In this document: positions 16,851-64,000 of the stretch, in pieces
Layout of the letters: each line of letters opens with the position of its first letter
Position numbering within the stretch: the stretch's first letter is position 1
Source: CAYFZR01 sp046760505 [NCBI: Candidatus Hydrothermarchaeota archaeon]
GTDB taxonomy: Archaea > CAYFZR01
NCBI GenBank assembly: GCA_046760505.1
Contig: JBHIEG010000011.1
Coordinates: forward strand, 1 to 64,000
Direction: 5' to 3'
DNA length: 64,000 bases
Notes under the pieces: generated by a model
What the model saw: only the letters and a program-made list of their open reading frames with translations
What the model was told of the DNA's origin: nothing
Databases searched by the model: none
Made by a program: the position numbers and the translations under genes

Positions 16851-17173
16851 GGTGGGTAGGCTATAGTCCATCTTCTGTAATTTCGGTGGCATTCGGCTAA
16901 GCGGACTACCTTCGCCTCAGACCAACAACTCATCGGCGACATTTGTCCTTGCACCCTACGGGGGGCTCGTCTCACCGGTCCCATTGATGTCGTCACCAAG
17001 TTAACTCGGAGACGATTGCTCGTCTCCTTCGTTGGATCATACCCATGAATCAATGGACGTGTCGTTTCTGCACCCTAACCCAGCCTTTCGACTACCTCTT
17101 CATAGAGGCGTAGTGTTGGTCAGGTGGATGGAACTTCCTCCGGAGTACCCGGGGAGCCACCAGCCTACCCACC
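16851..17173 (-). ncRNA. rnpB: RNase P RNA (archaeal type)
   Basis: Catalytic RNA that trims the 5' ends of pre-tRNAs. The two ends form an 11-bp P1 helix: GGTGGGTAGGC at the 5' end (17173) pairs with GCCTACCCACC at the 3' end (16851). Just inside the 5' end is GGAGGAAGTTCCATCC (the GAGGAAAGUC-type CR-I). Near the 3' end is GAAATTACAGAAGATGG (CR-V, the AUUACAGAA element of P4), and CAGAAACGAC lies in the middle. The length of about 323 nt fits. A CTTATATCA box lies about 25 nt upstream. A 117-codon ORF inside it is spurious. Confidence 0.93.
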
Positions 17174-51384: not shown

Positions 51385-52095
51385 CTAGCTCTCCGGGGCT
51401 TTTTTACGCACGATAACAACGTACCTAGATGTAAAAAAATTTAATGGAAACATCTTTCTCAAATACCTATGAATCTTTACCCACATACCAAACATATGCT
51501 TAGAAAGTCTCTGAGGAAAGTATTCGTGCCCAAGTCTTTTAATTTCATATTCAAATCCGAGTTCATTGAATATCTCTCTTATTTCTTTCTCAGAATACCA
51601 GAAATCGAATAAAGAACTGTTTTTCCCGAAAAAATTGAAAATTTTAAACAAATAGCCGTTAAAAGATTCTATTTTTGGAAAAGATATGATTACTAGATTA
51701 TTAGAGGCTCTTATCATCTCTCTTATCATCTTTGTCGATTTAAATACAGCGGTTAATCCTGCTGAGTTAACTACATCAAAACTATTATCTTTAAAGGGTA
51801 AGTATTCTGCATCTCCTCTAACGAGAAAGCATGAGGAGTTTACTTTGTTTAACATTTCCGCTGAAAAATCTAATCCACAAACAAAGTCTGATATTTTGGA
51901 TAATTCTCTTAGAAATCTTCCTGTTCCGCATCCAACATCTAATATGCGGTCCTTTTTAGAGACATTCATGATTTTTAAATGCTCATATAGACCCTCCTTT
52001 CTCACCTCCCCTAAAATAGATGGAGCATCGAGATCATGATATCTATTTGCTCTAAAATCATAGTACCGGAGGATCTTCTCCTTCAAGGAGGACAC
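51385..52095 (-). CDS. Class I SAM-dependent methyltransferase
   Basis: 236 residues. Motif I is ILDVGCGTGRFLREL, the acidic residue after strand 2 is in FVCGLDFSAEM, and FDVVNSAGLTAVF is motif IV. The C-terminal part has a basic, aromatic stretch (FPQRLSKHMFGMWVKIHRYL). The substrate is unknown; the layout is that of small-molecule or lipid methyltransferases. It overlaps the 98-aa gene upstream by 38 nt and is followed by xth. Confidence 0.9.
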   Translation of the reverse strand: MSSLKEKILRYYDFRANRYHDLDAPSILGEVRKEGLYEHLKIMNVSKKDRILDVGCGTGRFLRELSKISDFVCGLDFSAEMLNKVNSSCFLVRGDAEYLPFKDNSFDVVNSAGLTAVFKSTKMIREMIRASNNLVIISFPKIESFNGYLFKIFNFFGKNSSLFDFWYSEKEIREIFNELGFEYEIKRLGHEYFPQRLSKHMFGMWVKIHRYLRKMFPLNFFTSRYVVIVRKKAPES

Positions 52096-52354
52096 TCTTA
52101 ACCCCCCTGTAAAACTCAGGTCTTATCCTCACATAAGTCGTCTTCATTTCCCCTGATTTATATTCAAAGTCTTCAATGAGTTCCTCTAACTTTTCTGTCC
52201 TCTCTGCATTAAACTTATCCTTTAATAATTTGATTTCTCCTGCTGATCCGCCTCTATACCCGAAAAAGCATAGGATCAACAGGTAATTTTTTTCTTTCTG
52301 TTCTAGTTCAGAGATTTTTTTCCTTACATAAACTTCAATATCTTTGAGGACCAT
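52058..52354 (-). CDS. Small protein of unknown function, possibly winged-helix
   Basis: 98 residues: two helices (IEVYVRKKISELEQKEKNYL; the FFGYRGGSAGEIKLLKDKF region), a further helix and a beta-hairpin-like end (EMKTTYVRIRPEFYRGVKSV). The order fits a winged helix, but no family is recognised. It overlaps the methyltransferase start by 38 nt and is divergent from the FmdE gene across 17 nt. Confidence 0.6.
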   Translation of the reverse strand: MVLKDIEVYVRKKISELEQKEKNYLLILCFFGYRGGSAGEIKLLKDKFNAERTEKLEELIEDFEYKSGEMKTTYVRIRPEFYRGVKSVLLEGEDPPVL

Positions 52355-52371
52355 ATTACCACCGGGATAAT

Positions 52372-52968
52372 ATGAATTTCAAGGACTTTCACGGGCACAT
52401 CTGTCCAATGTCCATACTTGGTATCAAGATGTCTAACTATGCTCTAAAACTTTTGGATATCAACTCAAAAAAAGAGGGGATCATAGCGATTCCCGAAATA
52501 AGAAACTGCATGGTGGATGGAATACAGTGGACTATTGGCGCCACTTTCGGAAAGACAAATCTTATTTTTAGAGATATCGGGAAATATGCGTGTGTATTCA
52601 GCAGGGAGAAGGACGGAAGGTCTCTCAGGATAAAAATAAAAGATGATATAGTTGAAAAAAGTCTTGAATACGGAAAAGAAGCCCAAATGGTCCGTAAAAG
52701 ACTTTCTAAAATGGATGAAGAAGAAAAAAGATGGGAATTGGAACTGCTGTTCAGAAAGGGAAGGAACATAGTTGACTACATAGAAAAAAAGGACTATGAA
52801 GATCTCTTCGAGGTGAATGATGTAGAGCTGAATCTTAAGATAGAGGAAGATTCCCTTGATGTAAAAAGGTGTGATAAATGCGGAGAAATCACTTTGAAAG
52901 AAAAATTGACGGACAATTTATGCAAAGATTGCCTGGATCCTTTCTATTCTATAAAAACTATTCCATAA
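52372..52968 (+). CDS. FmdE-family protein with C-terminal zinc ribbon, copy 1
   Basis: 198 residues. The FmdE domain has the metal-binding DFHGHICPMSILGIKMSNYAL and the second conserved region NCMVDGIQWTIGATFGKTNL with IFRDIGKYACVF. A C-terminal zinc ribbon follows (CDKCGEIT...LCKDC). FmdE was named from formylmethanofuran dehydrogenase operons, but stand-alone members are thought to bind metal or act as cofactor chaperones. It is convergent with the degenerate AAA gene. A second copy is at 58057. Confidence 0.88.
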   Translation: MNFKDFHGHICPMSILGIKMSNYALKLLDINSKKEGIIAIPEIRNCMVDGIQWTIGATFGKTNLIFRDIGKYACVFSREKDGRSLRIKIKDDIVEKSLEYGKEAQMVRKRLSKMDEEEKRWELELLFRKGRNIVDYIEKKDYEDLFEVNDVELNLKIEEDSLDVKRCDKCGEITLKEKLTDNLCKDCLDPFYSIKTIP

Positions 52969-52988
52969 AGGATTATTAATCATCTATA

Positions 52989-53885
52989 TCAGAAGAAATA
53001 CTTGTGCATGCAATCATTTCTAAGTATCTCTTCGTACTTCTTTTTTATATTTTGAGTCATCCAGGGCTTTATTTCATGTACTGCGTCCAAGAAATCTTTC
53101 ATAGATATTTCATCAAATGAATCTCCTCTCTCCTTAATTGCATTTAAGGCTGCTCTCCTACATAATGCTTCAAGATCCCATCCAACAAAGTTTTCTGTTT
53201 TTCTGGCTATTTCCTCAAGATTAACATCTCTTGCAAGAGGATAATTCTTTGTATACATTTTTAGGATCTTCAATCTATCTTCTTGACTGGGAGGAGGAAC
53301 ATAGATCTTTTTCTCAAGTCTACCTCTCCTAAAAATCGCCATATCAACTACATCAAGTCTGTATCCCGATCCTACCACTAAAATATAGGAATCTTCTTTT
53401 AATGAATCTATGCCTTTGAATACTATCTCAGAGACTTCTTTGGATGCTATCTTATCTGGTTTTCCCCTCTCATCTCGATTTCCCCAATCGTAGGAACAAT
53501 TTCTTCTTGGAACAATCCAGTCCAGATCGCTGATATGCATAATGCATGGTTTATTTTCTCTGGCAAGCTTAAAAGCCTTAGAAACAGCCTCTGGAAGATC
53601 TGTTACCTCTCTTCCTCTGAGATAAACGTAGTTAACTCCGGCTTCACTTGCAGAGGCTTCTGCTAGAATAGCCTTTCCTGACCCAAGCGGACCCCATAAA
53701 AAAACACCAGTTGGAACCTTAAGATTTAATTTATTGAATGTTTTCATATGTTTTAAGGGAATGCAAATCATTTCCCTGATTTTTTCCTTTACCTCTTCGA
53801 GTCCAGCGATATCATCGAACGTTACCCTTGGCTTCCTCACATCGAGATAGGCGTTGTGATAGTGCATGGTCACACCAAAAGGCAT
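52989..53885 (-). CDS. Degenerate AAA protein (Cdc48/PAN-like fold, catalytic residues lost)
   Basis: 298 residues aligning with one Cdc48-type AAA module: FDDIAGLEEVKEKIREMICI, then GPLGSGKAILAEASASEAGV. The Walker A Thr/Ser is Ala72. The Walker B hhhDE reads IMHISDLD (D to Ser119, E to Asp120), the sensor-1 region ATNRPD is GSGYRLD, and the pore loop is replaced by GREVTDLPEAVSK. The arginine region FRRGRLEKKIYVPPP and the helical lid are kept. It therefore may bind but not hydrolyse ATP efficiently. It lies downstream of the class V aminotransferase gene on the same strand. Confidence 0.88.
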   Translation of the reverse strand: MPFGVTMHYHNAYLDVRKPRVTFDDIAGLEEVKEKIREMICIPLKHMKTFNKLNLKVPTGVFLWGPLGSGKAILAEASASEAGVNYVYLRGREVTDLPEAVSKAFKLARENKPCIMHISDLDWIVPRRNCSYDWGNRDERGKPDKIASKEVSEIVFKGIDSLKEDSYILVVGSGYRLDVVDMAIFRRGRLEKKIYVPPPSQEDRLKILKMYTKNYPLARDVNLEEIARKTENFVGWDLEALCRRAALNAIKERGDSFDEISMKDFLDAVHEIKPWMTQNIKKKYEEILRNDCMHKYFF

Positions 53886-53958
53886 CTTAATCTATTCTTA
53901 ATTTATACTGTTTCTATCCTCCATAACCTGTCTTCATTATTCTCCATTAACTACTTCC

Positions 53959-55059
53959 TTACCCTATGCTGTTCAATATATCCAGCAGTTTAGAAATGTC
54001 TTCCTCGCTGTTGTATATGTGGGGTGAAAACCTTATGTATTCTCGAAAAGATGCTATAACACCTTTATTTAAGAGATATTTTTCATTCAAATTATTTTTA
54101 ATTGAAATAATCCCTGATCTATTTTTTCTTTCAAAAGAACTCAATAATTCGAATTTTTCTAGTCCTTCTAAGAGCGATGTAGCCAGATCAAGTACTCTTT
54201 TTTGAATTTTCTTTAATCCTATTGAAAATATAAGTTCGAGAGCGGATTTCATCCCGATGATAGCCGAGATATCCATATTTCCTATCTCAAATCTGGATGC
54301 TGAATCTTTTAACTCATATCTGTAAATATTCATGGCTTTGTAATCTTTGACGGATAACCAGCCTAGAATAGGCGGATCGTCTATTAATTCTTCCTTTATA
54401 TAGAAAATTCCAGATCCTAACGGAGAAAGAAGCCATTTGTATCCGCCTGCTGATAAAAAATCAATATTGTAGCTCTTTACATCCATTTCAAAGACTCCAA
54501 GTGATTGGGTAGCATCCACGTGGAGTAAAACACCCTTTTCAACGCAGATCTTTCCTATCTCATTTAAATCTACTCTGAAGCCATTGCCGTACATCACTGA
54601 GCTTATTGAAACCAACTTTGTGTTATCATCGATTTCTCTCTCCAATTCTTCTGGCAGTAGTTTTCCACCTACGTTCCTCACGTACTTTATCTCTACCCCT
54701 TTTCTCCTAAGATTTAGGAAAGGATATATGTTTGCTGGAAAATCTAGGTCGCTTACGATCACGTTATCTCCCTTTTCCCAGTCTATTATTAAAGCCACAA
54801 GATTTACGCCCTCAGATGTATTCTTTACGAAGGCTATCTCAGATTCTTTAGCCCTGCAGATCTTTGCTGCCAGTTTCCTGCAATCTTCTACTTCCTGAGA
54901 CCACTTATCGAAGCATAAAGATCCATAAATTGCTCTCTCAAGTTCAAATTTTCTCATAGAATCGATGACCGGATAGCAGTAAGGAGAAAGAGATGCCGCA
55001 TTAAAGTAGAGGAACTTATTTACGATTGGAAAAAGATTTCTTAAAGATTCGAATTTCAT
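53959..55059 (-). CDS. Class V aminotransferase (cysteine desulfurase-like)
   Basis: 366 residues, PLP-dependent. It opens YFNAASLSPYCYPVIDSM, has VKNTSEGVNLVALI, LLHVDATQSLGVFEMDV with the cofactor aspartate and the PLP lysine in SAGGYKWLLSPLGSGIFY. The C-terminal domain is complete. Members of this fold-I group include SufS/IscS, kynureninase and isopenicillin-N epimerase types; the cysteine loop of true desulfurases is not evident. Its start overlaps the ABC ATPase gene by 44 nt, so it is part of the importer operon. Confidence 0.88.
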   Translation of the reverse strand: MKFESLRNLFPIVNKFLYFNAASLSPYCYPVIDSMRKFELERAIYGSLCFDKWSQEVEDCRKLAAKICRAKESEIAFVKNTSEGVNLVALIIDWEKGDNVIVSDLDFPANIYPFLNLRRKGVEIKYVRNVGGKLLPEELEREIDDNTKLVSISSVMYGNGFRVDLNEIGKICVEKGVLLHVDATQSLGVFEMDVKSYNIDFLSAGGYKWLLSPLGSGIFYIKEELIDDPPILGWLSVKDYKAMNIYRYELKDSASRFEIGNMDISAIIGMKSALELIFSIGLKKIQKRVLDLATSLLEGLEKFELLSSFERKNRSGIISIKNNLNEKYLLNKGVIASFREYIRFSPHIYNSEEDISKLLDILNSIG

Positions 55060-55846
55060 CGGATCTTCCCTCTAAACATGTCTCTTTATCTCTAACCTCT
55101 TTCTTTAATAGATCCCAAATCTCCTGCCTTATTTCCGGAAACTTGGGATTTGTTTTTGCCTCATCTCTGGGTCTTGAGAGTTCTATATCTATTATTTCTT
55201 TTATCCTAGCAGGTCTTGAAGACATTACCGCTACTCTATCAGATAAATAAATGGCTTCGTCAATGTTGTGCGTCACGTAGATTATCGTTTTTTTCGTCCT
55301 ATTCCAAATTCTCAGCAACTCTCTCTGTAGATTCTCACTGGTCAGAGCGTCTACCGAAGCGAATGGCTCGTCCATCAAGAGCACGTCAGGATCTGTTGAA
55401 AGTGCCCTTGCAAGAGCGGCTCTCTGCATCATTCCTCCAGAAAGATCCCTTGGATAAACATCTTCGAAGCCCTTTAGCCCAACCAGTTCTATGTAATATT
55501 TTGCGATTCTCTCCCTTTCCCTCTTCTTTATTCTTCTTATCTCTAGTCCCAACTCAACATTTTTCATCACGGTTCTCCAGGGTAATAAGGCATAGCCCTG
55601 AAAAAGCATGCCTCTATCAAGTCCGGGTCCTTTAATCTCCTTACCGTTGATTTTTACGATTCCATGCGTGGGTTCTTCTAATCCTGCTATTATATTCAGT
55701 AGAGTTGTTTTTCCGCACCCGCTTGGTCCAACAATACCTAAAAACTCGCCATCTCTTACATCTAAGGACAAATCTTTTAAAACTACCAAATCAGAGTTAT
55801 CTAAGCGAAATACCTTTGTTAAGTTTTCTATACTTATCTTTGCCAT
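55016..55846 (-). CDS. ABC importer ATPase (nitrate/sulfonate/taurine type, SsuB/NrtD-like)
   Basis: 276 residues. It has Walker A GPSGCGKTT, Q-loop LFQGYALLPWRTVM, signature LSGGMMQRAALARAL, Walker B VLLMDEPFASVDALT and the switch histidine in IIYVTHNIDEAIYL. The PWRTV segment is typical of the SsuB/TauB/NrtD group. Its membrane partner (58713) and binding protein (57099) are encoded nearby on other transcription units. It is the first gene of the minus-strand pair with the class V aminotransferase. Confidence 0.93.
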   Translation of the reverse strand: MAKISIENLTKVFRLDNSDLVVLKDLSLDVRDGEFLGIVGPSGCGKTTLLNIIAGLEEPTHGIVKINGKEIKGPGLDRGMLFQGYALLPWRTVMKNVELGLEIRRIKKRERERIAKYYIELVGLKGFEDVYPRDLSGGMMQRAALARALSTDPDVLLMDEPFASVDALTSENLQRELLRIWNRTKKTIIYVTHNIDEAIYLSDRVAVMSSRPARIKEIIDIELSRPRDEAKTNPKFPEIRQEIWDLLKKEVRDKETCLEGRSDEIRIFKKSFSNRK

Positions 55847-55963
55847 ATTTGATCTCCACGATAAAGTGTCTGGAATGCCATAAGAACCACTGTAATCTCT
55901 TATATTTTTACTCTTTCATTTGAGATAACATTTAAGAAATAAGATTTAGACTCATTAGAAATA

Positions 55964-57031
55964 ATGAATGTTGCGAGAAAAAAGATATTACTGCAGTCAA
56001 AAGGAGTCAGAATAGATTTTGATCTGGAAAATAAGTTGAAAAAAAGATTTTCTGGCGTAACTCAGGACTTCATGTCATTTTTCATGGATGAAATTCCTGT
56101 TGGAATACTCAATGGATATTTTACTGAAGAATCTCCCTTTGAAATAAGGCAAATTGGAAATGAGCAATTTGTATTCAAGAGCGATGAGTTATTCGCTAAG
56201 ATAAGATTCTTACCTCGGCCCGATTTCTTGAACAAAAGGACTTCTGAGGGAATAAAAATGGAAGACCTTTGTAACTATGTCGCACCTGGTTTTCTTATCA
56301 TATATCTGAGTCAGAGATGTGTCTACTGGAGAGTAAAAAAACAGTGTAAATTCTGCGTTACAGAATATGAGGATAAACTGGCTGAGAAAAATAAAGAACA
56401 GATTGTGGAGTTGGTAGAACAGGCATTAAAAGAGGGGTCAATAAAGACTCATGTAAATCTTACTACCGGAACTCTAAAAGGACCTGATAGGGGGATTAAG
56501 CCTTTAGCTGAGGTAACGAATGCGATAAAAGAGAGATTCGACGTTAAGGTAAGTGTAAATGGAGAACCGCCTAGAGATCTTAAATATTTGGATTTACTGG
56601 AAAACGCGGATTCTTTGTACATAAACATCGAGATTTTTGATGAGAAATACAGAAAAGAATTGATGCCTGGAAAAGGAATGATACCCATAGAACACTATGT
56701 TGAGGTATTTAAAAAGTCTTTAGAGATATTTGACGAAAATCAGGTGTGCTCAACCCTTCTAGCTGGTCTACAGAGGGATGAGAAACTGTTAGAGGGAGCA
56801 GAGTTCCTAGCTCAGTTAGGGGTGTTACCGGTCGTACTGCCCTTTTATCCTAGACCATTCACACCATTAGAAAATTTAAAGCCTCCAGATGCTGAGAGAA
56901 TGGAAAAGATCTATGCAGAGACATCAGAGATAATAAAAGACTATGGATTAGATCCATTTAAGACAAAAGCAGGGTTCATGAGGGGAGGCGCTATCTTTGC
57001 ACTGAAAGAGGTTTATGAATCTTTATGTTAA
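55964..57031 (+). CDS. Radical SAM protein with CX8CX2C cluster motif
   Basis: 355 residues. The cluster cysteines are in LSQRCVYWRVKKQCKFC (Cys119, Cys128, Cys131), a wider first spacing than the usual CX3CX2C. The rest fits a radical SAM barrel: HVNLTTGTLKGPDRGIKPL, VSVNGEPPRDLKYLDLL, YINIEIFDEKYRKELMPGKG and VLPFYPRPFTPLENL. The wide spacing with an aromatic YWR insert recalls a small group of radical SAM enzymes of unknown reaction. It is divergent from the importer ATPase and followed 67 nt later by the binding-protein gene. Confidence 0.88.
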   Translation: MNVARKKILLQSKGVRIDFDLENKLKKRFSGVTQDFMSFFMDEIPVGILNGYFTEESPFEIRQIGNEQFVFKSDELFAKIRFLPRPDFLNKRTSEGIKMEDLCNYVAPGFLIIYLSQRCVYWRVKKQCKFCVTEYEDKLAEKNKEQIVELVEQALKEGSIKTHVNLTTGTLKGPDRGIKPLAEVTNAIKERFDVKVSVNGEPPRDLKYLDLLENADSLYINIEIFDEKYRKELMPGKGMIPIEHYVEVFKKSLEIFDENQVCSTLLAGLQRDEKLLEGAEFLAQLGVLPVVLPFYPRPFTPLENLKPPDAERMEKIYAETSEIIKDYGLDPFKTKAGFMRGGAIFALKEVYESLC

Positions 57032-57098
57032 TTAATCCAAAGGTTGCATTAAAATATCGGAAACTTTTAAATATCCTCAACTTCTTTAACTTGCAAAT

Positions 57099-58064
57099 AT
57101 GTATATTACTAGGTTAACACTAATCATGATTATTGTAATGCTACTTTTGAGCGGTTGCATTTCAAGAGTTCCTGAAAGAGAACTCCCAATGAGGATAGGA
57201 CAACTCAGCGGCGTTGCCAACGAGGAATACTTCGCGATATATAACAATTACTTCGAAAAGGAAGGATTGAACATCACATGGGTTCCTTTCAGGGGAGGAT
57301 CCGGTGTAGTTCAAGCGGCAATTGCAAACCAGATAGATGGCGGCGTGATGGGATCTGTACCTGCGGTTATAAAAGCTGTTTCCAGAGGAGTACCATTGAA
57401 AATTGTTGCAGTGGGAGCATTAGAAACTAAGGAACATTCTGGAGACAGGCTAGTTGTTTTAAAAAAATCAGGAATAAAGGATATCAAGGATCTAAAGGGC
57501 AAAAAGATTGCAGTGCATAGATTCGGAACAACGCTGGACTTTATAGTCAGAAGAGTATTAAAAGAGAACGGCATAGATCCGGTTAAGGATGTCACACTGG
57601 TTCAAGTGCCAGTGCCTCAAATGGTCCCGGTGCTTCAGAGAGGAGAGGTAGATGCTGCTTTCATCTTCCCCTATTTCTATCCTTATGTAAAAGACAACGT
57701 GACAATTTTAATCACTCCAGGAGACGTGTATCCAGAGGGATTTCCAATTAGTGTGGTTTTTTTCAGGGAAGAATTTATACAAGAGCACCCAGAAAAAGTT
57801 GAAAAATTCGTTAGGGCTTATCTAAAGGGTATTGAATGGGGAGAAAACAACCCCGACAAGTTACCGGATCTCGTTGTAAAATACACAGATATACCAAGAG
57901 AAATAGCCACAGAAATCCCATGGCCTGCAAATAATCCCTCAGGCAGGGTAGATTCGAAAACATTCGATAAAATAATAAGTGATATAAAAGATTACGATCC
58001 TACGCTTTTAGAAAAGAATGTTACAGGGGAAGATTTATTAGATTATAGATTCTTGCCTACTTGA
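57099..58064 (+). CDS. ABC importer substrate-binding lipoprotein (NMT1/SsuA type)
   Basis: 321 residues. A lipoprotein signal ends MLLLSGC (Cys20). The mature part is the NMT1/THI5/SsuA fold: MRIGQLSGVANEEYFAIYNN, EGLNITWVPFRGGSGVVQAA, DGGVMGSVPAVIKAV, LKGKKIAVHRFGTTLDF and VLQRGEVDAAFIFPYF. Such proteins bring in nitrate, sulfonates, taurine or pyrimidine precursors. It overlaps the end of the convergent FmdE gene by 8 nt. The ligand cannot be told from sequence. Confidence 0.92.
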   Translation: MYITRLTLIMIIVMLLLSGCISRVPERELPMRIGQLSGVANEEYFAIYNNYFEKEGLNITWVPFRGGSGVVQAAIANQIDGGVMGSVPAVIKAVSRGVPLKIVAVGALETKEHSGDRLVVLKKSGIKDIKDLKGKKIAVHRFGTTLDFIVRRVLKENGIDPVKDVTLVQVPVPQMVPVLQRGEVDAAFIFPYFYPYVKDNVTILITPGDVYPEGFPISVVFFREEFIQEHPEKVEKFVRAYLKGIEWGENNPDKLPDLVVKYTDIPREIATEIPWPANNPSGRVDSKTFDKIISDIKDYDPTLLEKNVTGEDLLDYRFLPT

Positions 58065-58737
58065 TTTCCTTATAAATTCCCTCTCCTGCGCAGGGGCGAC
58101 AGTATCTCTTTCCATCTTTTTCTACTGTTTTTCTCTCTTCCACCAGATCATTGCATCGAGCGCATTTTATCGCATTCGTTATGTATTGAGTGTCCAGAGG
58201 ATACATCATGTCCTCTGGATTCACTTTGACCTCTGAAACTATGAACAGTTCATCATCTCCCATTTTGTTCCATTTCTCTAACAATCCGTCTTCAATATCA
58301 AATAATTCCTTTCTCCATTTCTCTGCTTCTTCATCAGAGAGATTATCTACCTTTTCGTAAAATTTTGCCAACTCAGATCCATACCTTATGTGCTCTTCAT
58401 CAACATCTTCTCTGCACCTTATTCTAATGGTCTTGCCAGTTCTTCGATCGCAAAATATGGCTGCGAACTTTCCATAATCCTTGAAGGTTAATCTGCCGCT
58501 TCCAAAAGAGCAATTCGTTGCGCTGGCTATTCCATCTGCTGCACAGGTTAGAACCTCCACTGTAGCGCATAAATCTCTTTTCCTTTTAATATCAAGTTTT
58601 TTTAGAGCTAACATACCCATTCTGGCCCCTAAATAAGAGGCCGTACAGACATGACCATGTACTCTTCTCACGGTTTCTAGTATCTCATCGAGAGTCATTT
58701 CCTTCAGTTCTTTTAGACTCTTATCTCTCTTCTCCAT
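58057..58737 (-). CDS. FmdE-family protein with C-terminal zinc ribbon, copy 2
   Basis: 226 residues. The FmdE domain has HGHVCTASYLGARMGMLALK, CAADGIASATNCSFGSGRLT and FKDYGKFAAIF. The zinc ribbon at the end is CARCNDLV...RYCRPC. The N-terminus has an extra 30 residues compared with copy 1. Its start overlaps the importer permease gene by 25 nt, so it belongs to that operon. A role as metal- or cofactor-binding partner of the imported compound is an inference. Confidence 0.88.
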   Translation of the reverse strand: MEKRDKSLKELKEMTLDEILETVRRVHGHVCTASYLGARMGMLALKKLDIKRKRDLCATVEVLTCAADGIASATNCSFGSGRLTFKDYGKFAAIFCDRRTGKTIRIRCREDVDEEHIRYGSELAKFYEKVDNLSDEEAEKWRKELFDIEDGLLEKWNKMGDDELFIVSEVKVNPEDMMYPLDTQYITNAIKCARCNDLVEERKTVEKDGKRYCRPCAGEGIYKEIK

Positions 58738-59477
58738 CTGGTCGTCCTCCTCTCTATTGCGAGCATAATTTCATTGAATATGAATCCTATCATGCCTATG
58801 GTAAATATTCCGGCGAACATCTTTTCGGTTTGAAATGCATATTCCGCATCCAATATCAAGAATCCCAAGCCTGCTCTAGCCCCAATCATTTCAGTTACAA
58901 TGAGCAGTATCAAAGAGACAGCAAGGGATAATCTTAGACCCGTGATTATAAATGGGGTCGCGCTAGGTAAGATTATCTTCGTAACTATTTGAAGGCGAGA
59001 AGCCTCGAACAATTTTGCCACGTTTACAAGGTTTAAATCCACGTGTCTCACTCCTGATATCGTGTTTAGAAGTATTGGAAAATAGCAGGCAAAAGCAATT
59101 ATCAGGATTTTTGAGGCATTTTCAATGCCCAACCATAAGATTGCGACAGGAATTAAAGCAGCAGCAGGTATAGGTCTAAACAACTCTACGATAGGATTAG
59201 AAATATCTTCAACAGTCCTAGACAAGGCTATCAGGATTCCATGGGGTATAGCGATAATCGCTGCTATGAAAAAACCGGAGAGCGCTCGATAGAGACTTAC
59301 CTTTACATGTGTAATCAATTCTCCGTTCATTATAAGCGTGATGAAGGTTAGAAGAACCTTAGAAGGTGCTGGAAGGAAAAGAGAACTCACTAAACCTAGA
59401 TCACAGAAAACTTCCCATAAAAAGAAAAATATCAAGAGAGAGCCAATTCTTAGAAGGTATCTCCGATTCAATTTCAT
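58713..59477 (-). CDS. ABC importer permease (SsuC/TauC-like)
   Basis: 254 residues with about six membrane helices. The permease signature lies in the segment SNPIVELFRPIPAAALIPVA and WLGIENASKIL; the EAA loop is LFEASRLQIVTKIILPSATP followed by FIITGLRLSLA. This is typical of the SsuC/TauC/NrtB group. The gene start abuts the stop of the AmrS copy 2 gene (0 nt gap) and its end overlaps FmdE copy 2. Confidence 0.93.
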   Translation of the reverse strand: MKLNRRYLLRIGSLLIFFFLWEVFCDLGLVSSLFLPAPSKVLLTFITLIMNGELITHVKVSLYRALSGFFIAAIIAIPHGILIALSRTVEDISNPIVELFRPIPAAALIPVAILWLGIENASKILIIAFACYFPILLNTISGVRHVDLNLVNVAKLFEASRLQIVTKIILPSATPFIITGLRLSLAVSLILLIVTEMIGARAGLGFLILDAEYAFQTEKMFAGIFTIGMIGFIFNEIMLAIERRTTRWRREIRV

Positions 59478-60467
59478 TTAAAACACCAGTGGTATTTCAT
59501 TTCCGCATTTACATTTTTTTTCCATTAATTTCCAATCAGTAATGTCGTATCCTTCCCTTTTTATAATTAGATTCTTGCATTTGGGACAGTATGTGTTTTT
59601 CCCAGGATGGGAATAAATGTTCTCCAAGTAAACGTATTCCAATCCGCTTTCATAAGCGAGATTTAACGCTGATTCCATCACATCTAAGGGAGTAGAACTT
59701 ATATTGTCCATCCTGTAACTCGGTATATATCGAAGAAAAATTAGCGGAGAGTTCAAAAGCCCCGCAAAATTAATTACTTCTCCCAAATTTTTTTGATAAT
59801 TAGGTATTAAGACATAAACGATTTCTAAATGAATTTTTTCCTCTTTTATAAATAAAGCAAGGTCTCTTATTTCATTCAAGACTTTTTTTCTTGAACTCCC
59901 ACAAACGTTTCTGTAGAATGAATCATCTCCTTTTAGAGAGATGATAACTGCATCCGTGTAATTAGATATGTGCTTAAAGGCATCTTTTGAAATTAATCCG
60001 TTTGTAGCAAATACATTTAATAATTTTTTTTCATCAGCGTCTTTCATTATTTCTGAATAGTACTCTAAGTTGAGAGTTGGTTCAGAATGAGTGTATACGA
60101 TGCCCTTACAATCGAGTTCTAAAGCTGCCCTAACAAGTTTCTTAGGCATCAAGAAGACGGTACTTATTTCTTCAAGCGGAACCTGAGTAATGTTCCAAGT
60201 TAAGCAAAATTCGCACCTGAGGTTGCATCCAGCACTTCCTATCATCAAAAAACGATTGTTTGGGTAGAAATGAAAGCATGGTGTTTTTTCTATAGGATCT
60301 ACGCTAAAACTGGTAAGTTTCCCGTAAATAAGATTGTATAATTTTCCTTTTCGGTTTTCTCTTACCCCGCAAAATCCTCTTCTTCCCTCTTCAATCGTGC
60401 ATTGAAAAATACAAAGCTTGCACCTTATCTTACCGTTATTTTTAGAGTAGAACATCGCCTCCTTCAT
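59478..60467 (-). CDS. AmrS-type radical SAM enzyme, copy 2 (divergent)
   Basis: 329 residues from the ATG at 60467; this start aligns with copy 1 (EAMFY after the Met) and has a TATA-like box 26 nt upstream. A longer start at 60503 overlaps the permease stop. N-terminal Cys motif CKLCIFQCTIEEGRRGFCGV, radical SAM CNLRCEFC, VYTHSEPTLNLEYY, FLRYIPSYRMD and Cys pairs CPKCKN...CKCG are present. Relative to copy 1 the HPHYK motif is PSYR, and NVDIKGF is AVIISLKGD. It sits inside the importer operon. Confidence 0.88.
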   Translation of the reverse strand: MKEAMFYSKNNGKIRCKLCIFQCTIEEGRRGFCGVRENRKGKLYNLIYGKLTSFSVDPIEKTPCFHFYPNNRFLMIGSAGCNLRCEFCLTWNITQVPLEEISTVFLMPKKLVRAALELDCKGIVYTHSEPTLNLEYYSEIMKDADEKKLLNVFATNGLISKDAFKHISNYTDAVIISLKGDDSFYRNVCGSSRKKVLNEIRDLALFIKEEKIHLEIVYVLIPNYQKNLGEVINFAGLLNSPLIFLRYIPSYRMDNISSTPLDVMESALNLAYESGLEYVYLENIYSHPGKNTYCPKCKNLIIKREGYDITDWKLMEKKCKCGNEIPLVF

Positions 60468-60488
60468 CAAAGAGCCTTTGGACAAGAT

Positions 60489-60498
60489 GATATAAAAA
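60489..60498 (-). promoter_or_regulatory. TATA-like box before AmrS copy 2
   Basis: TTTTTATATC on the minus strand, centred about 26 nt before the ATG at 60467. It would start a leaderless internal transcript for the AmrS copy 2 - importer permease - FmdE genes. Confidence 0.45.
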
Positions 60499-60499
60499 T

Positions 60500-61033
60500 T
60501 CATTCTTGAGATTCTTTGAATAACACCTCATCAAAGAAATCAGCCAAGAATCCAGATAATAAAGCACTAAGAAAAGTTGCAAAGGAGATTAAACAAACAA
60601 GTAATAATCCAAAGACAGGGTCATTTGGTTTAACAAAAGCAAAAAATGCATATGCCTGGGGGAAACTTAAAACAATTGATCTTGAAGCGGTAAGGGCGGT
60701 TACAGATCCTAACGTAGCGCCTTGTTTGAGGAGAGTCGATAGCAGGGGCAACCTAAACAGACCTTTAGGAGGAGTTATGGTACCGAGTAGCACACCATAT
60801 AGAAGTCCTTTCTTTCCTGCTTTCTTACCCAAGAGTTTAGAAACGATATTTTCAGGCATGAAGTTTTGAGTTAAGCCTGCTAACAACATTGCCACTATCA
60901 CAAGAGGTAGCACTTCGAAAAAAAGGTCTACCGTAAATGAAAGAGCCTCCTTAAATCTAGAGCTGTCCAGTGTAAAGAGGGCAAAATAAAAGGCGAGTAC
61001 TATATATAAGATCCATTGCTCACTTTTTCTCAC
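60500..61033 (-). CDS. Permease half-protein (DUF318/PF03773-like), C-terminal half
   Basis: 177 residues from a GTG at 61033, which overlaps the upstream stop (GTGA) and has GGGTGG upstream. About five membrane helices. It aligns with its neighbour: FMPENIVSKLLGKKAGKKGL, LYGVLLGTITPPKGLFRLPL, LSTLLKQGATLGSVTALTAS and FPQAYAFFAF. This is the layout of one half of the DUF318 permease family, which is normally a single chain of about 300-350 residues. The open frame to 61261 is a shadow of the upstream gene. The substrate is unknown. Confidence 0.85.
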   Translation of the reverse strand: MRKSEQWILYIVLAFYFALFTLDSSRFKEALSFTVDLFFEVLPLVIVAMLLAGLTQNFMPENIVSKLLGKKAGKKGLLYGVLLGTITPPKGLFRLPLLSTLLKQGATLGSVTALTASRSIVLSFPQAYAFFAFVKPNDPVFGLLLVCLISFATFLSALLSGFLADFFDEVLFKESQE

Positions 61034-61512
61034 AGAAAACCACCCATAAAACTCGCTATGATTCCAGCGAAAAATGCTCCGGTGATTATTGCAAGCGCCT
61101 GGATCTTCATTATGCGTGTATCCAGAAATGCATATGCTTGAGGCAGGTACAAGAGGGAAAAACTTGCAAGGAGTGCTGTAACAGCGCCAATTCCCGCTCC
61201 AAGTTGTAGTAAGGTCACAACAACTGGCAATCGAATGTAGGGTCCTCCTGGAAGTATACAACCTAGGGCAACGCCGAATAATATACTTCTATATCCATGC
61301 GAACCTCCCAAAAAAGTTATAACAAGATTTTCTGGCAGTACGGAATGAACTATACCTGCTAAGGCTATACCAGCGAGCAATAGGTAAAAGGTATTCAGAA
61401 AGGTATCGTATGAGTATCTCAGGCTCTTCCTAGTTTTTTCTTCATCTCTGTAGTAACAGAAAAGATACATCAAAATACAAAGCAAAATGAAGGTTACCTC
61501 TATGATTTCCAT
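61030..61512 (-). CDS. Permease half-protein (DUF318/PF03773-like), N-terminal half
   Basis: 160 residues, about five membrane helices. Shared motifs with the next gene are VLPENLVITFLGGSHGYRSI, LFGVALGCILPGGPYIRLPV, VTLLQLGAGIGAVTALLASF and LPQAYAFLD. The two genes overlap by 4 nt and so form a translationally coupled pair, probably assembling as a heterodimer in place of one fused permease. It is the first gene of the minus-strand operon that ends with FmdE copy 2. Confidence 0.85.
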   Translation of the reverse strand: MEIIEVTFILLCILMYLFCYYRDEEKTRKSLRYSYDTFLNTFYLLLAGIALAGIVHSVLPENLVITFLGGSHGYRSILFGVALGCILPGGPYIRLPVVVTLLQLGAGIGAVTALLASFSLLYLPQAYAFLDTRIMKIQALAIITGAFFAGIIASFMGGFL

Positions 61513-61574
61513 GATATGTTAAAATCCAAGGGAATATTAAAATTCTTTCGTAACAGAAGATTATAGGTGGAAGA

Positions 61575-62246
61575 ATGTACGACAAAGGCATTGTAATCTT
61601 TATATCATCAACTTTCATATTATTGCCCATAGTAAATCTTTTAGAAAATCCATTTGAAGTCCAGAGAGATCAAAATTTAGAGAATTTCTTAGCTTTAAAG
61701 CCCCTTTTTTATTTTGAAGGAAATTCCAGTTTAATAAGGGAGGCGACTAAATATGAGATCGAAAAGATAAAACTATTCTCGAATTTCGTTTCAATGAATC
61801 AATCTCAAAGAGAAACTTTGGATAAATTCCTCTCTGCCTACAATAAAACAATGGAAGACATTATACTGTGCTCGAATCTTGAGCATAAAATTAGAAGTGC
61901 ACCCTCTTATGAATTAGCATTAAGAATAGAGGAACAGTACAGAAAAATATTAAGGGATTATGAGTTAATGATTTCCTATTTGCTAGATCTAAGTGGTTTT
62001 ATGGAAGACTATCCAGACGATTTAGTCGTTAGAGAAAAATACGGCTACAAAATTACTGTTTATGATATTAAAAGAGAGGTAGAACTCTGTATGGAAAACA
62101 AAGATTCAATCGCAAAAGAAATAGAAAGAAGGAGTGAAATACTGCATAAAAATGATGTTGCGAAAAGGTTAATCTTAGAGCAATTTATTCTTCTATTGAT
62201 GGTGATTTCCGTGGTAATTTATGTATTCAGGAGGTATAGATCTTGA
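61575..62246 (+). CDS. Membrane protein with helical extracytoplasmic domain
   Basis: 223 residues: an N-terminal membrane or signal helix (about 6-22), a long helical domain (SLIREATKYEIEKIKLFSNF; ELALRIEEQYRKILRDYELM; VYDIKREVELCMENKDSIAK), and a C-terminal membrane helix (about 200-217) ending RRYRS. No family is recognised. It is coupled by a 4-nt overlap to the next gene and is divergent from the permease operon across 62 nt. Confidence 0.75.
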   Translation: MYDKGIVIFISSTFILLPIVNLLENPFEVQRDQNLENFLALKPLFYFEGNSSLIREATKYEIEKIKLFSNFVSMNQSQRETLDKFLSAYNKTMEDIILCSNLEHKIRSAPSYELALRIEEQYRKILRDYELMISYLLDLSGFMEDYPDDLVVREKYGYKITVYDIKREVELCMENKDSIAKEIERRSEILHKNDVAKRLILEQFILLLMVISVVIYVFRRYRS

Positions 62247-62707
62247 TTTTACTGTTGGTTTTATTCAACATATCCTCTATTTTATCCAGTTATCCTATTC
62301 CTTATGCAAACGAAAGTGCATTTATAGATGGTCCCTACCACGTTATGGACCATAAGTACTATGCGGTTACCTATAGCGATAAAGAAATTCAGGGGATATT
62401 CATTTTAAACTCTACCGGATACCTAGAACTGGACAAGTTAATATGGCAGGAGGTTCTCATGAAAAAATACAACCGTAGTCTTACCGCTTGGGACTACTAC
62501 ATAATAAGAAAGACAGAGAACAGAATTTTCAAGAGGATTCGTCTAGAAATAATGCTTGAATTAATAAAAAAGGGTATGAGACCTACAATGTTCTCATTGA
62601 TCCACGATCTTACGTCGGATATCATTCACGACAACCCGTTTTTATGGCGCATGAGAGTAAAAGAGCCTAAAACTTTCCTCAGATTACCAAGACGCTTGGA
62701 GGGATAA
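62243..62707 (+). CDS. Secreted protein with a DGPYY-type domain
   Basis: 154 residues, started at a TTG with GGAGG 8 nt upstream and overlapping the previous stop. A signal-like N-terminus (LILLLVLFNISSILS) is followed by NESAFIDGPYHVMDHKYYAV and TYSD..GIFILNSTGYLELD, a domain that recurs twice in the next gene. The C-terminal half is basic and helical (RIFKRIRLEIMLELIKKGMR). No family is recognised. It overlaps the start region of the next gene. Confidence 0.7.
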   Translation: MILLLVLFNISSILSSYPIPYANESAFIDGPYHVMDHKYYAVTYSDKEIQGIFILNSTGYLELDKLIWQEVLMKKYNRSLTAWDYYIIRKTENRIFKRIRLEIMLELIKKGMRPTMFSLIHDLTSDIIHDNPFLWRMRVKEPKTFLRLPRRLEG

Positions 62708-62709
62708 CG

Positions 62710-64000
62710 ATCAGAAAAGAATTCAAAGTTGTTCCACCTTTTATTCTATTAATTCTTATTCTACCATTTCTATTATTCATGCCGGCTTTTTGTGTTAAGG
62801 AAGAGATAAGAGAGAAGGCAAAAGAACTTGCTACTCCTCAAGAAGTAGTCATGATAGAGGGGCCAATATACTACAGGAATGATCCTTTTTATCTGGTAGA
62901 TTTCGTATCAAAAGGAGAAGTAAAAAATTCACTTGTTTACGATGCCAATGCAAACTTGGTTGAGAATTCAACCATAGAAAAGAAGATACTTGCTACATAC
63001 TCTTTTTATGAAGTAACAAGAGAAGATCCATTGTTTTATTCATTGGGAGATCCTTCTTTCTTGCCCAAGGCATTTGATTATGATGTAGAAAACGTAAAAA
63101 ATTTCATGGAGTACTGTTCGATTTCAGATCAGGAAAAGAAAATCGTTTTAAAGAGTTTACAAGATTATAAGGTTTTGGGTAAAGACATTGAAGCATGCAG
63201 TAGCTTAACCAATAAAATTTTGAACTGGAAAAATCCTTCCCGAATAGAGATTGATTTTAAAGAAGATATCCCTAAGGCAAGAATAACTATAGTAAATAGA
63301 ACAGGCAAGCTTTCATACGAAGATTGTATCAAACTAACTGAATTGTACGACAGGATTTATTCTGATTACATGGTCTTTGTATCAGATTTGGAGGCTTTTT
63401 CTTCTCTAATAACTGTTTTTCCAGAAGAAAAGCGCAGGCAGAAGTACAATTTAACTGTTACAGATAAAGACATATTAGACGAAGTAACCGCTCTTAAAGA
63501 AAACGGTAATGCAATGAAACTTGAGATAGATTCGAGAAAGAAAATAATGGGCATACAGGAAGTGCTCAGGGAGCCTCGATCTCCTTCATACAAAAACTAC
63601 AAGTTATTAGCGTTTGTCCTTATAATTCTCTTAGTTACAATTCTACGCCTGCGTGGAAAATTATTTTTCATGACTCTTATTCTGCTTCTCACCCTTTCTC
63701 TTGCAATAGAAACGCCTGAAGAAATAATGGAAAAACAGGTCATGGATCCGAGTAAAATGGATCTGAAGATATACGCTAAAGGGATTTCCGATTCTGAAGT
63801 GAGAAAAGTTTTAGAAGGTTATCCTTTCATGCTTAAAGGTGAAAAGGTCATAGTAGATGGTCCCTACTACTACGAAAGCCGAGCCTACTACATATTTGAT
63901 TTTAAGAAAGAGGGAGAGCCTCCAGGAAGTGTTCTGATAGTCGATGCGATACACAAAAGAAAGCTTCCGGCTCGTAAGATAATTGTTCGATTGTATAGAA
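62710..64000 (+). CDS. Membrane protein with two DGPYY-type domains (partial, C-terminus off window)
   Basis: Open from the TAA at 62668 to the right edge, about 430 residues. There is no ATG, GTG or TTG before the first membrane helix (VVPPFILLILILPFLLFM). GGAGG at 62698-62702 lies 7 nt before an ATC at 62710, and an ATA overlaps the previous stop at 62704. An ATG at 62779 would cut the helix. Domain copies are VMIEGPIYYRNDPFYLVDFV (about 48-68) and VIVDGPYYYESRAYYIFDFK near the end, separated by a central hydrophobic pair of helices (about 300-335). The function is unknown. Confidence 0.75.
   Translation, partial: MRKEFKVVPPFILLILILPFLLFMPAFCVKEEIREKAKELATPQEVVMIEGPIYYRNDPFYLVDFVSKGEVKNSLVYDANANLVENSTIEKKILATYSFYEVTREDPLFYSLGDPSFLPKAFDYDVENVKNFMEYCSISDQEKKIVLKSLQDYKVLGKDIEACSSLTNKILNWKNPSRIEIDFKEDIPKARITIVNRTGKLSYEDCIKLTELYDRIYSDYMVFVSDLEAFSSLITVFPEEKRRQKYNLTVTDKDILDEVTALKENGNAMKLEIDSRKKIMGIQEVLREPRSPSYKNYKLLAFVLIILLVTILRLRGKLFFMTLILLLTLSLAIETPEEIMEKQVMDPSKMDLKIYAKGISDSEVRKVLEGYPFMLKGEKVIVDGPYYYESRAYYIFDFKKEGEPPGSVLIVDAIHKRKLPARKIIVRLYR

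What the first reader, a model, noticed from the sequence alone, without database searches (positions are those of the whole stretch)
52372..61512. Candidate undescribed system: scattered sulfonate-type importer with FmdE pair, two radical SAM enzymes, aminotransferase, dead AAA protein and split permease
ATPase, binding protein and permease of one importer lie on three transcription units. Woven between are two FmdE proteins, a CX8CX2C radical SAM protein, an AmrS-like radical SAM enzyme, a class V aminotransferase and a degenerate AAA protein, often with overlapping genes. The mix suggests import of a small precursor or metal compound, its radical conversion and insertion or sulfur transfer with FmdE as carrier. 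No named pathway with this set is known to me.
Basis: partly seen in the sequence, partly recalled or inferred. Interest (0 to 1): 0.66.

Follow-up and report, generated by a model that had tools for sequence, protein, structure and literature searches.

The report
Conserved archaeal FmdE radical-SAM gene cluster
A set of about sixteen neighbouring archaeal genes, mixing metal-binding FmdE proteins, radical enzymes, methyltransferases and a small-molecule importer, recurs in part in a few other rare archaea, so it looks like a real but uncharacterised pathway, perhaps one that builds or modifies a small cofactor.

Summary
In an unnamed archaeal genome (G051), 12 of 15 window ORFs from 51385-63999 have their best hits in one 21-kb stretch. 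The block is larger than reported: a methyltransferase and a small protein upstream, three further genes downstream.

Orthologues of FmdE2 and the variant radical SAM protein occur in the same 6 of 23 genomes of one small archaeal phylum, scattered on its DP2 tree (Fitch 4 changes). FmdE2 orthologues were not found in 1,014 genomes of three other archaeal phyla. What recurs is the two FmdE proteins, methyltransferases, the variant radical SAM protein and an HgdB-like reductase. The importer's binding protein is in 2 of the 6, so import is optional.

The 'split permease' is two coupled half-size genes. The AAA protein's Walker B loss is shared by 6 of 6 homologues. MCR is in 0 of the 23.

Best reading: an accessory anaerobic pathway that modifies a sulfur- and/or metal-containing small molecule held by FmdE. 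Substrate and product are unknown; the function is inference.

The parts
51385..52095 (-).
   Evidence: Methyltransf_25/11; 42-43% to MTs beside FmdE1 in the 4 relatives aligned: G051, G054, G060, G062
52058..52354 (-). Small uncharacterised protein (c31 family), overlaps MT by 38 bp
   Evidence: No Pfam match; homologues (28-34%) beside FmdE1 in G050, G051, G060, G062 and beside AAA/rSAMv in G054
52372..52968 (+). FmdE1: FmdE core plus C-terminal zinc finger, HGHxC...C site
   Evidence: PF02663 108.8 bits; 101-131-bit hits in 5 of the 6 core genomes, best other hit 88.6 bits; ligands conserved
52989..53885 (-). Degenerate AAA protein, CDC48-like
   Evidence: AAA 62.7 bits; Walker A GPLGSGKA; Walker B Asp replaced in 6 of 6 aligned, C-terminal CxH in 6 of 6
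53959..55059 (-). Class V PLP enzyme (SufS fold without the catalytic-Cys loop)
   Evidence: PF00266; nearest solved 5b7s, Cys loop missing; 51% homologue beside AmrS2 in G054
55016..55846 (-). SsuB/TauB-type ATPase of the importer
   Evidence: Best NCBIfam SaoA 272.3 bits, below cut-off 360; 63% homologue stands apart from SsuAC in G051
55964..57031 (+). Variant radical SAM protein, CX8CX2C here, CX7CX2C in orthologues (rSAMv)
   Evidence: NF045502 above cut-off; 49-55% orthologues in 6 genomes; motif spacing
57099..58064 (+). SsuA/TauA-type binding protein, lipobox by eye
   Evidence: SsuA_fam 144.2 bits, cut-off 163.5; nearest solved TauA; orthologues in G050 and G051
58057..58737 (-). FmdE2: FmdE core plus zinc finger, HGHxC...C site
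   Evidence: PF02663 103.5 bits; 51-57% orthologues in 6 of 198 relatives
58713..59477 (-). SsuC/TauC-type permease of the importer
   Evidence: Best NCBIfam SaoP 179.1 bits, below cut-off 295; G051 homologue 374.7 bits beside SsuA
59478..60503 (-). AmrS-like radical SAM enzyme (AmrS2), CX3CX2C
   Evidence: TIGR04337 above cut-off; 53-55% homologues in FmdE2 operons of G051 and G054
60500..61033 (-). Half-size ArsP_1 permease, second gene; GTG start overlaps perm1 stop by 4 bp
   Evidence: ArsP_1 positions 2-104 of 294; start codon
61030..61512 (-). Half-size ArsP_1 permease, first gene
   Evidence: ArsP_1 positions 14-130 of 294; adjacent pairs in G050 L105 and in two genomes of the Hadarchaeota phylum, L212 and L213
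61575..62246 (+). Probable secreted/membrane protein (by eye) sharing a repeat with the 62779 gene
   Evidence: No Pfam match; best hit is the same G051 ORF as for 62779-63999 (59.9 bits)
62243..62707 (+). Short protein of the same group
   Evidence: Best hit is the same G051 ORF (54.6 bits)
62779..63999 (+). Probable secreted/membrane protein (by eye), runs off the window
   Evidence: 207.5 bits to G051 1166074-1168026; 667-aa homologue beside an FmdE paralogue in G050

Best explanation
This is an accessory anaerobic pathway of rare archaea that builds or modifies a small sulfur- and/or metal-containing molecule held by the two FmdE proteins.

Shown by sequence: two FmdE proteins with intact His-x-His-x-Cys...Cys sites plus zinc fingers; two radical SAM enzymes in the block (in some relatives a third, B12-type one); SAM methyltransferases; in relatives an HgdB-like, double-cubane-related reductase; a PLP enzyme; and an AAA protein with an altered nucleotide site. 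FmdE2 and rSAMv are co-inherited, and FmdE1 nearly so.

Inferred: the SsuABC importer, where present, brings in a sulfonate-like organosulfur precursor. The PLP enzyme and rSAMv carry out sulfur or amino-group chemistry. AmrS2, the reductase and the methyltransferases tailor the molecule. FmdE presents it bound to a metal and/or as a thioester. The AAA protein helps transfer it. The paired half permeases expel a product or by-product.
For: Conserved neighbourhood: 12 of 15 block ORFs map to one 21-kb stretch of G051. The remaining genes are found in relatives' loci: the PLP enzyme beside AmrS2 in G054, SsuB alone in G051, the half-permease pair near HgdB-like, AmrS-like and rSAMv paralogues in G050.

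Co-inheritance: FmdE2 and rSAMv in the same 6 of 23 phylum genomes, FmdE1 in 5 of those 6; patchy on the DP2 tree, Fitch 4 changes among 21 tips.

Operon logic in relatives: FmdE2-MT2 adjacent in all 6, HgdB-like next in 3 of 6, AmrS2 after it in G051 and G054, B12 radical SAM before FmdE2 in 4 of 6; c31, MT or both beside FmdE1 in the 5 genomes where it was read.

Carrier idea: the solved FmdE site binds Zn/Ni through His, His, Cys and Cys, and in one structure unexplained density lay 1.8 A from the fourth-ligand Cys (PMC2954224, sections 3.3 and 3.7 read). The same four residues are conserved in 6 FmdE1 and 7 FmdE2 sequences.

Sulfur link: distant relatives of rSAMv lie near HcyBio sulfur-incorporation genes in 3 of 3 Hadarchaeota loci read. 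Copies in L105 and L127 weakly match LipS2 (42.7 and 35.0 bits, cut-off 270). The binding protein is nearest to TauA/SsuA.
Against: No substrate, product or activity is known. The window's own rSAMv gives no LipS match. The Hadarchaeota relatives are only 37-40% identical to rSAMv, and the seven other loci of distant relatives that I read (L136-L142) show no HcyBio cluster. SsuA is absent in 4 of 6 core genomes, so import cannot be an obligate step. AmrS2 was seen in only 2 of the 6 (the loci read). HgdB-like, B12 radical SAM and PqqD-like genes were not found in the 64-kb window, and the rest of this genome is not held. In G060 the pieces are spread over about 46 kb, and in G062 over separate contigs. 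A solved FmdE relative lacks the metal site, and the authors also proposed regulatory roles.
Confidence: 0.38

Rival explanations
1. Sulfonate scavenging: taurine, coenzyme M or another sulfonate is imported and its C-S bond is cleaved reductively (HgdB-like reductase and radical SAM enzymes) to supply sulfur or methyl groups; in G051 MtaA-type methyltransferases about 3 kb away would take the methyl group.
For: The importer is of the TauA/SsuA type. The HgdB-like protein is related to double-cubane reductases. An MtaA-like protein, with what looks by eye like a corrinoid protein, lies beside the G051 locus.
Against: FmdE2 and rSAMv occur without SsuA in 4 of 6 genomes. FmdE, AAA, the methyltransferases and PqqD are not needed for desulfonation. 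The MtaA-like score is below family cut-offs.
Confidence: 0.2
2. Two or three independent modules (FmdE1-MT-small protein-AAA; FmdE2-AmrS2 pathway; SsuABC importer) lie together because accessory genes accumulate there.
For: The pieces are 17-46 kb apart in G060 and on separate contigs in G062, the importer is variable, and SsuB sits alone in G051.
Against: FmdE1 (5 of 6), FmdE2 and rSAMv co-occur across four changes on the tree, and the same pieces adjoin in the window and in G051.
Confidence: 0.2
3. An archaeal counterpart of the SAO (selenocysteine-assisted organometallic) system: ABC import of an organometal, processing, and efflux by an ArsP/SaoE-type permease.
For: SaoA and SaoP are the best NCBIfam matches of SsuB and SsuC, and SaoE a weak match of the permease.
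Against: All Sao scores are far below cut-offs (272.3 of 360, 179.1 of 295, SaoX 40.2 of 300, SaoE 16.8 of 325). No SaoL, SaoC, SaoT or SaoB among the listed matches of the ten proteins scanned (two of the ten lists were capped at 25). SaoX is a worse match than SsuA_fam.
Confidence: 0.08
4. Metal-responsive regulation: FmdE zinc-finger proteins and the small proteins sense a metal and control a transporter set.
For: FmdE zinc fingers were proposed as regulators, and most FmdE genes lie near metal-ion transporter genes (PMC2954224, section 3.7); a helix-turn-helix regulator follows rSAMv in G051.
Against: It does not explain radical SAM enzymes, methyltransferases and a dehydratase-type reductase in the same operons.
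Confidence: 0.07

Closest known systems
FmdE family (PF02663), including the fmdECB operon
   Same: Both proteins are clear members with the HxHxC...C metal site and a zinc finger
   Different: No formylmethanofuran dehydrogenase gene was recognised in the loci read; FmdE2 forms its own orthologue group; no MCR in the 23 phylum genomes
SAO organometallic system (Haft and Gwadz 2023; paper not held, known here through passages of the review PMC13188914)
   Same: Best NCBIfam names for SsuB and SsuC are SaoA and SaoP; both have an ABC importer plus an ArsP-like permease
   Different: Below every cut-off; no SaoL/SaoC/SaoT/SaoB match listed; has FmdE, AmrS2 and a variant radical SAM protein instead
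AmmeMemoRadiSam radical SAM enzyme (TIGR04337)
   Same: AmrS2 scores above the cut-off
   Different: Differs from the window's AmrS1 (the G051 homologue scores 391 against AmrS2 and 231 against AmrS1); partners in G051 and G054 are FmdE2, MT2 and HgdB-like
MSMEG_0568 / variant radical SAM family (TIGR04043, NF045502)
   Same: rSAMv passes NF045502 and is related to TIGR04043
   Different: Below the TIGR04043 cut-off (193.1 of 303.7)
2-hydroxyacyl-CoA dehydratase / double-cubane cluster proteins (PF06050)
   Same: The HgdB-like protein of the relatives' operons is nearest to 6eno/7yyl among solved structures
   Different: Far below equivalog cut-offs; embedded with FmdE2 and MT2; not seen in the window
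Taurine/sulfonate ABC importers (TauABC, SsuABC)
   Same: All three subunits fall in this group
   Different: Subunits scattered; below the SsuA_fam, taurine and SaoX cut-offs; substrate untested

Membership tests
FmdE (PF02663) | Profile match above gathering score | tested here: met
   108.8 and 103.5 bits, cut-off 22.9
FmdE (PF02663) | His, His, Cys and Cys metal ligands | tested here: met
   HGHxC and the later Cys conserved in 6 FmdE1 and 7 FmdE2 sequences; ligands from PMC2954224
Formylmethanofuran dehydrogenase operon | Adjacent catalytic-subunit genes | tested here: not met
   None among the ten window proteins scanned; relatives' loci judged partly by eye
SAO system | SaoA/SaoP/SaoX above equivalog cut-offs | tested here: not met
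   272.3/360, 179.1/295, 40.2/300 bits
SAO system | SaoL, SaoC, SaoT, SaoB proteins | tested here: inconclusive
   None listed for ten proteins at E 0.01, two lists capped; other proteins of the genome not scanned or not held
AmmeMemoRadiSam system | Radical SAM subunit above cut-off | tested here: met
   241.1 of 220 bits
AmmeMemoRadiSam system | Memo and AMMECR1 partners linked to this gene | tested here: inconclusive
   None among the neighbours scanned; rest of genome not searchable
Cysteine desulfurase (SufS) | Catalytic Cys loop | tested here: not met
   Loop missing against 5b7s; PLP Lys kept
Taurine/sulfonate importer | Curated subfamily cut-off for the binding protein | tested here: not met
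   SsuA_fam 144.2 bits, cut-off 163.5; yet nearest solved relative is TauA
Taurine/sulfonate importer | Binds a sulfonate | not testable with these tools
   No ligand data; single-sequence model too poor (mean pLDDT 46.5)
Active AAA+ ATPase | Walker A GxxxxGK[ST] and Walker B DE | tested here: not met
   Window GPLGSGKA and SD; Walker B Asp replaced in 6 of 6, Walker A intact in 3 of 6

The most novel reading that the evidence does not exclude
An undescribed biosynthetic system that assembles a new metal- and sulfur-containing small cofactor on FmdE proteins, using AmrS-type, B12-type and variant (CX7-8CX2C) radical SAM enzymes with a double-cubane-related reductase. This would give FmdE, AmrS-like and MSMEG_0568-like proteins a shared role.
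Probability: 0.25. Interest if true: 0.85.

Novelty: new variant of a known kind. Interest (0 to 1): 0.5.

Why it matters
FmdE, AmrS-like and MSMEG_0568-like radical SAM proteins are named families whose function is, to my knowledge, unsettled. A compact, partly co-inherited set that joins them to methyltransferases, a double-cubane-related reductase and an importer makes their roles testable together. It also places FmdE proteins outside methanogenesis, since none of the 23 phylum genomes has MCR (the window's own genome could not be tested).

Tried and rejected
Methanogenesis or alkane-oxidation role: unlikely, MCR alpha in 0 of 23 phylum genomes, while 2 of 14 control genomes rang. SAO membership: rejected on cut-offs. 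Broken permease: rejected, paired half genes recur. Cysteine desulfurase: rejected, Cys loop missing. Recent horizontal transfer between the window and G051: no sign, because system proteins are about as diverged as the housekeeping DP2 or more (rSAMv 53, FmdE2 54, AmrS2 55, SsuA 54, MT 43, FmdE1 41% against DP2 56%; SsuB 63%). Peptide (RiPP) product: a PqqD-like gene in relatives raises it, but I did not search systematically for a precursor gene.

Led nowhere: first genome scan with rSAMv, viral contigs, plasmids (distant FmdE only, 7 records), single-sequence structure models (mean pLDDT 65.3 and 46.5, not used for fold search), a tRNA scan.

Change after checking: the motif spacing was corrected.
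Full report
Observation. One detail changes: the three cysteines of the variant radical SAM protein are invariant in nine aligned sequences, but the CX8CX2C spacing holds in three of them (window, L105 copy, L127:7504), while the six orthologues have CX7CX2C. The second half permease starts at GTG 61033 and overlaps the stop of the first by four bases. The window is archaeal: an archaeal RNase P RNA lies at 16852-17172 and a D-family DNA polymerase large subunit (DP2) at 5463-8798. No whole genome is held for it.

Where the organism sits. In the phylum of G051 the best DP2 match is G051 itself (1318 bits, 56%). In the DP2 tree the window falls outside that phylum's clade, which has bootstrap support 99 without it; an earlier tree of 77 rows gave the window a long branch, so its place is unsure. 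The phylum holds 23 genomes here and includes L047 = G035, titled Hydrothermarchaeota, and L077 = G050, archaeon OS_PC_MetaG.mb.32. G051 is unnamed.

The neighbourhood is conserved. Of 66 non-overlapping window ORFs of 90 or more residues compared with 260 kb of G051, 15 lie between 51385 and 63999, and 12 of these have their best hit inside 1146677-1168026. They map to ten G051 ORFs, because the last three window ORFs all match one long G051 protein. They are MT, the small protein, FmdE1, AAA, rSAMv, SsuA, FmdE2, SsuC, AmrS2 and those three. Of the other 51 window ORFs, 7 have any hit in the 260 kb, one of them being AmrS1 to the AmrS2 homologue. perm1 was left out of the 66 by the overlap rule; perm1 and perm2 had no hit in that stretch. 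The block genes without an orthologue there are found in relatives' loci: the PLP enzyme next to AmrS2 in G054 (51%); SsuB, 63% identical, at a distant site in G051; the half-permease pair in G050 a few genes from HgdB-like, AmrS-like and rSAMv paralogues.

Organisation in relatives (families). G051: SsuA-SsuC-PqqD-like-B12 radical SAM-FmdE2-MT2-HgdB-like-AmrS2, divergent from rSAMv and a helix-turn-helix regulator; then AAA, two small proteins (c30, c31), FmdE1 and MT. G050 carries similar pieces on separate short contigs. G054: FmdE2-MT2-HgdB-like-AmrS2, then the PLP gene on the other strand. G060, G062 and G063: B12 radical SAM-FmdE2-MT2, with a PqqD-like gene seen in G060; c30-c31-FmdE1-MT elsewhere in G060 and G062; HgdB-like beside cbiL-cbiF in G060, and likewise in G062. 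In G060 rSAMv, FmdE1, HgdB-like and FmdE2 lie within about 46 kb. AmrS2 was seen only in G051 and G054, and SsuA only in G050 and G051.

Co-occurrence. rSAMv orthologues (49-55% to the window) were found in G050, G051, G054, G060, G062 and G063; the best hit in any other phylum genome was 35% (G057). FmdE2 orthologues (53-59%) were found in the same six; other FmdE hits to this part of the query were at 34% or less, apart from hits running across the joint of the query at 33-35%. FmdE1 gave 101-131 bits in five of the six (not G063, a draft), with 88.6 bits as the best other hit, a smaller gap. Both searches covered all 23 phylum genomes; at most five candidates a genome were scored. On the DP2 tree of 21 of them (two gave no DP2 hit) the pattern needs four changes, against a mean of 5.3 for six random tips: patchy, though somewhat clustered. 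Draft incompleteness could mimic absence.

Rarity. SsuA: 2 of 23 in the phylum at E 1e-25, 0 of 344 in the phylum of an Archaeoglobus MAG and 0 of 28 in the Hadarchaeota phylum, both at E 1e-40. FmdE2 at E 1e-28: 0 of 389, 0 of 227 and 0 of 398 in the phyla of a Thermoplasmata, a Jordarchaeum and a Culexmicrobium genome (two of the three were samples of larger groups). These calls have no positive control of their own; the same protein, as part of a joined query, rang. Bacterial genomes were not searched, apart from plasmids, which gave only distant FmdE proteins (7 records).

Anatomy and mechanism. Solved FmdE members bind Zn (and Ni) through His15, His17, Cys19 and Cys55 (Desulfitobacterium numbering), and in a Thermoplasma structure unexplained density at the last Cys suggested a thioester; a third member lacks the site (PMC2954224, section 3.3). 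Both window proteins and all aligned orthologues keep the four residues. A metal- and ligand-bearing carrier is therefore plausible; it is not shown. The HgdB-like protein of the relatives is nearest to solved 6eno/7yyl (labelled dehydratase family) and to the double-cubane reductase model (54.7 bits, cut-off 350). AmrS2 keeps CX3CX2C. The PLP enzyme keeps its Lys but lacks the catalytic-Cys loop of SufS. The AAA protein has lost the Walker B Asp in 6 of 6 sequences; Walker A is intact in 3 of 6; the C-terminal CxH is kept in 6 of 6. So 'dead' is fair for the window copy, while the family is altered rather than decayed.

Sulfur hint. In three Hadarchaeota loci (G008, G016, G081) relatives of rSAMv at 37-40% lie near HcyBio sulfur-incorporation genes, with FdhD in two, NadA in two and SufS-like enzymes in two (clusters; families confirmed on examples). 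Seven other loci of distant relatives (L136-L142) do not show this. Two copies match LipS2 weakly, the G051 orthologue at 22 bits and the window's protein not at all. The binding protein is nearest to TauA, then SsuA, and less near to nitrate and thiamine-pyrimidine binders.

Judgement. The system is real and conserved, and no listed paper's title or abstract describes it (the library holds open-licence papers only, and of the listed papers only PMC2954224 and PMC13188914 were opened). A carrier-bound assembly or modification pathway is the most likely reading (0.38), ahead of sulfonate scavenging (0.2), chance gathering of modules (0.2), an SAO-like organometal system (0.08) and metal-responsive regulation (0.07). 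Substrate and product remain unknown.

Noticed in passing
L212:8837-9922; L213:7941-9105; L105:1227-2308: Paired half-size ArsP_1-like permease genes recur in other archaea; in L212 and L213 (phylum of a Hadesarchaea genome) they lie near a short helix-turn-helix protein that resembles Tfx regulators (by eye, name recalled). The four halves tested all match the N-terminal half of the family, three of four above its cut-off.
   Followed up: partly
L133, L134, L135: Relatives of the variant radical SAM protein sit with HcyBio, NIL ferredoxin, FdhD, NadA and SufS-like genes in Hadarchaeota.
   Followed up: partly
L127:5261-10639, L128, L130, L132: A second cluster holds two NirJ/AhbD-related radical SAM proteins, another variant radical SAM protein, a methyltransferase and a deacetylase-like protein, all below curated cut-offs except NF045502 (on L127).
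   Followed up: partly
L225-L229, L232: DP2 genes of several phylum members carry long insertions near residue 865, consistent with inteins; the window's DP2 has none.
   Followed up: no
window 61575-63999: Three genes of a shared group, no Pfam match for the two scanned; their homologue lies near FmdE genes in G050 and G051.
   Followed up: partly
L208:749-4139: G050 has a further FmdE with a methyltransferase-like gene and a homologue of the window's 62779 protein.
   Followed up: no
L129:16531-19347: MtaA/CmuA-like methyltransferases (one scanned) and what looks like a corrinoid protein lie beside the G051 locus.
   Followed up: partly
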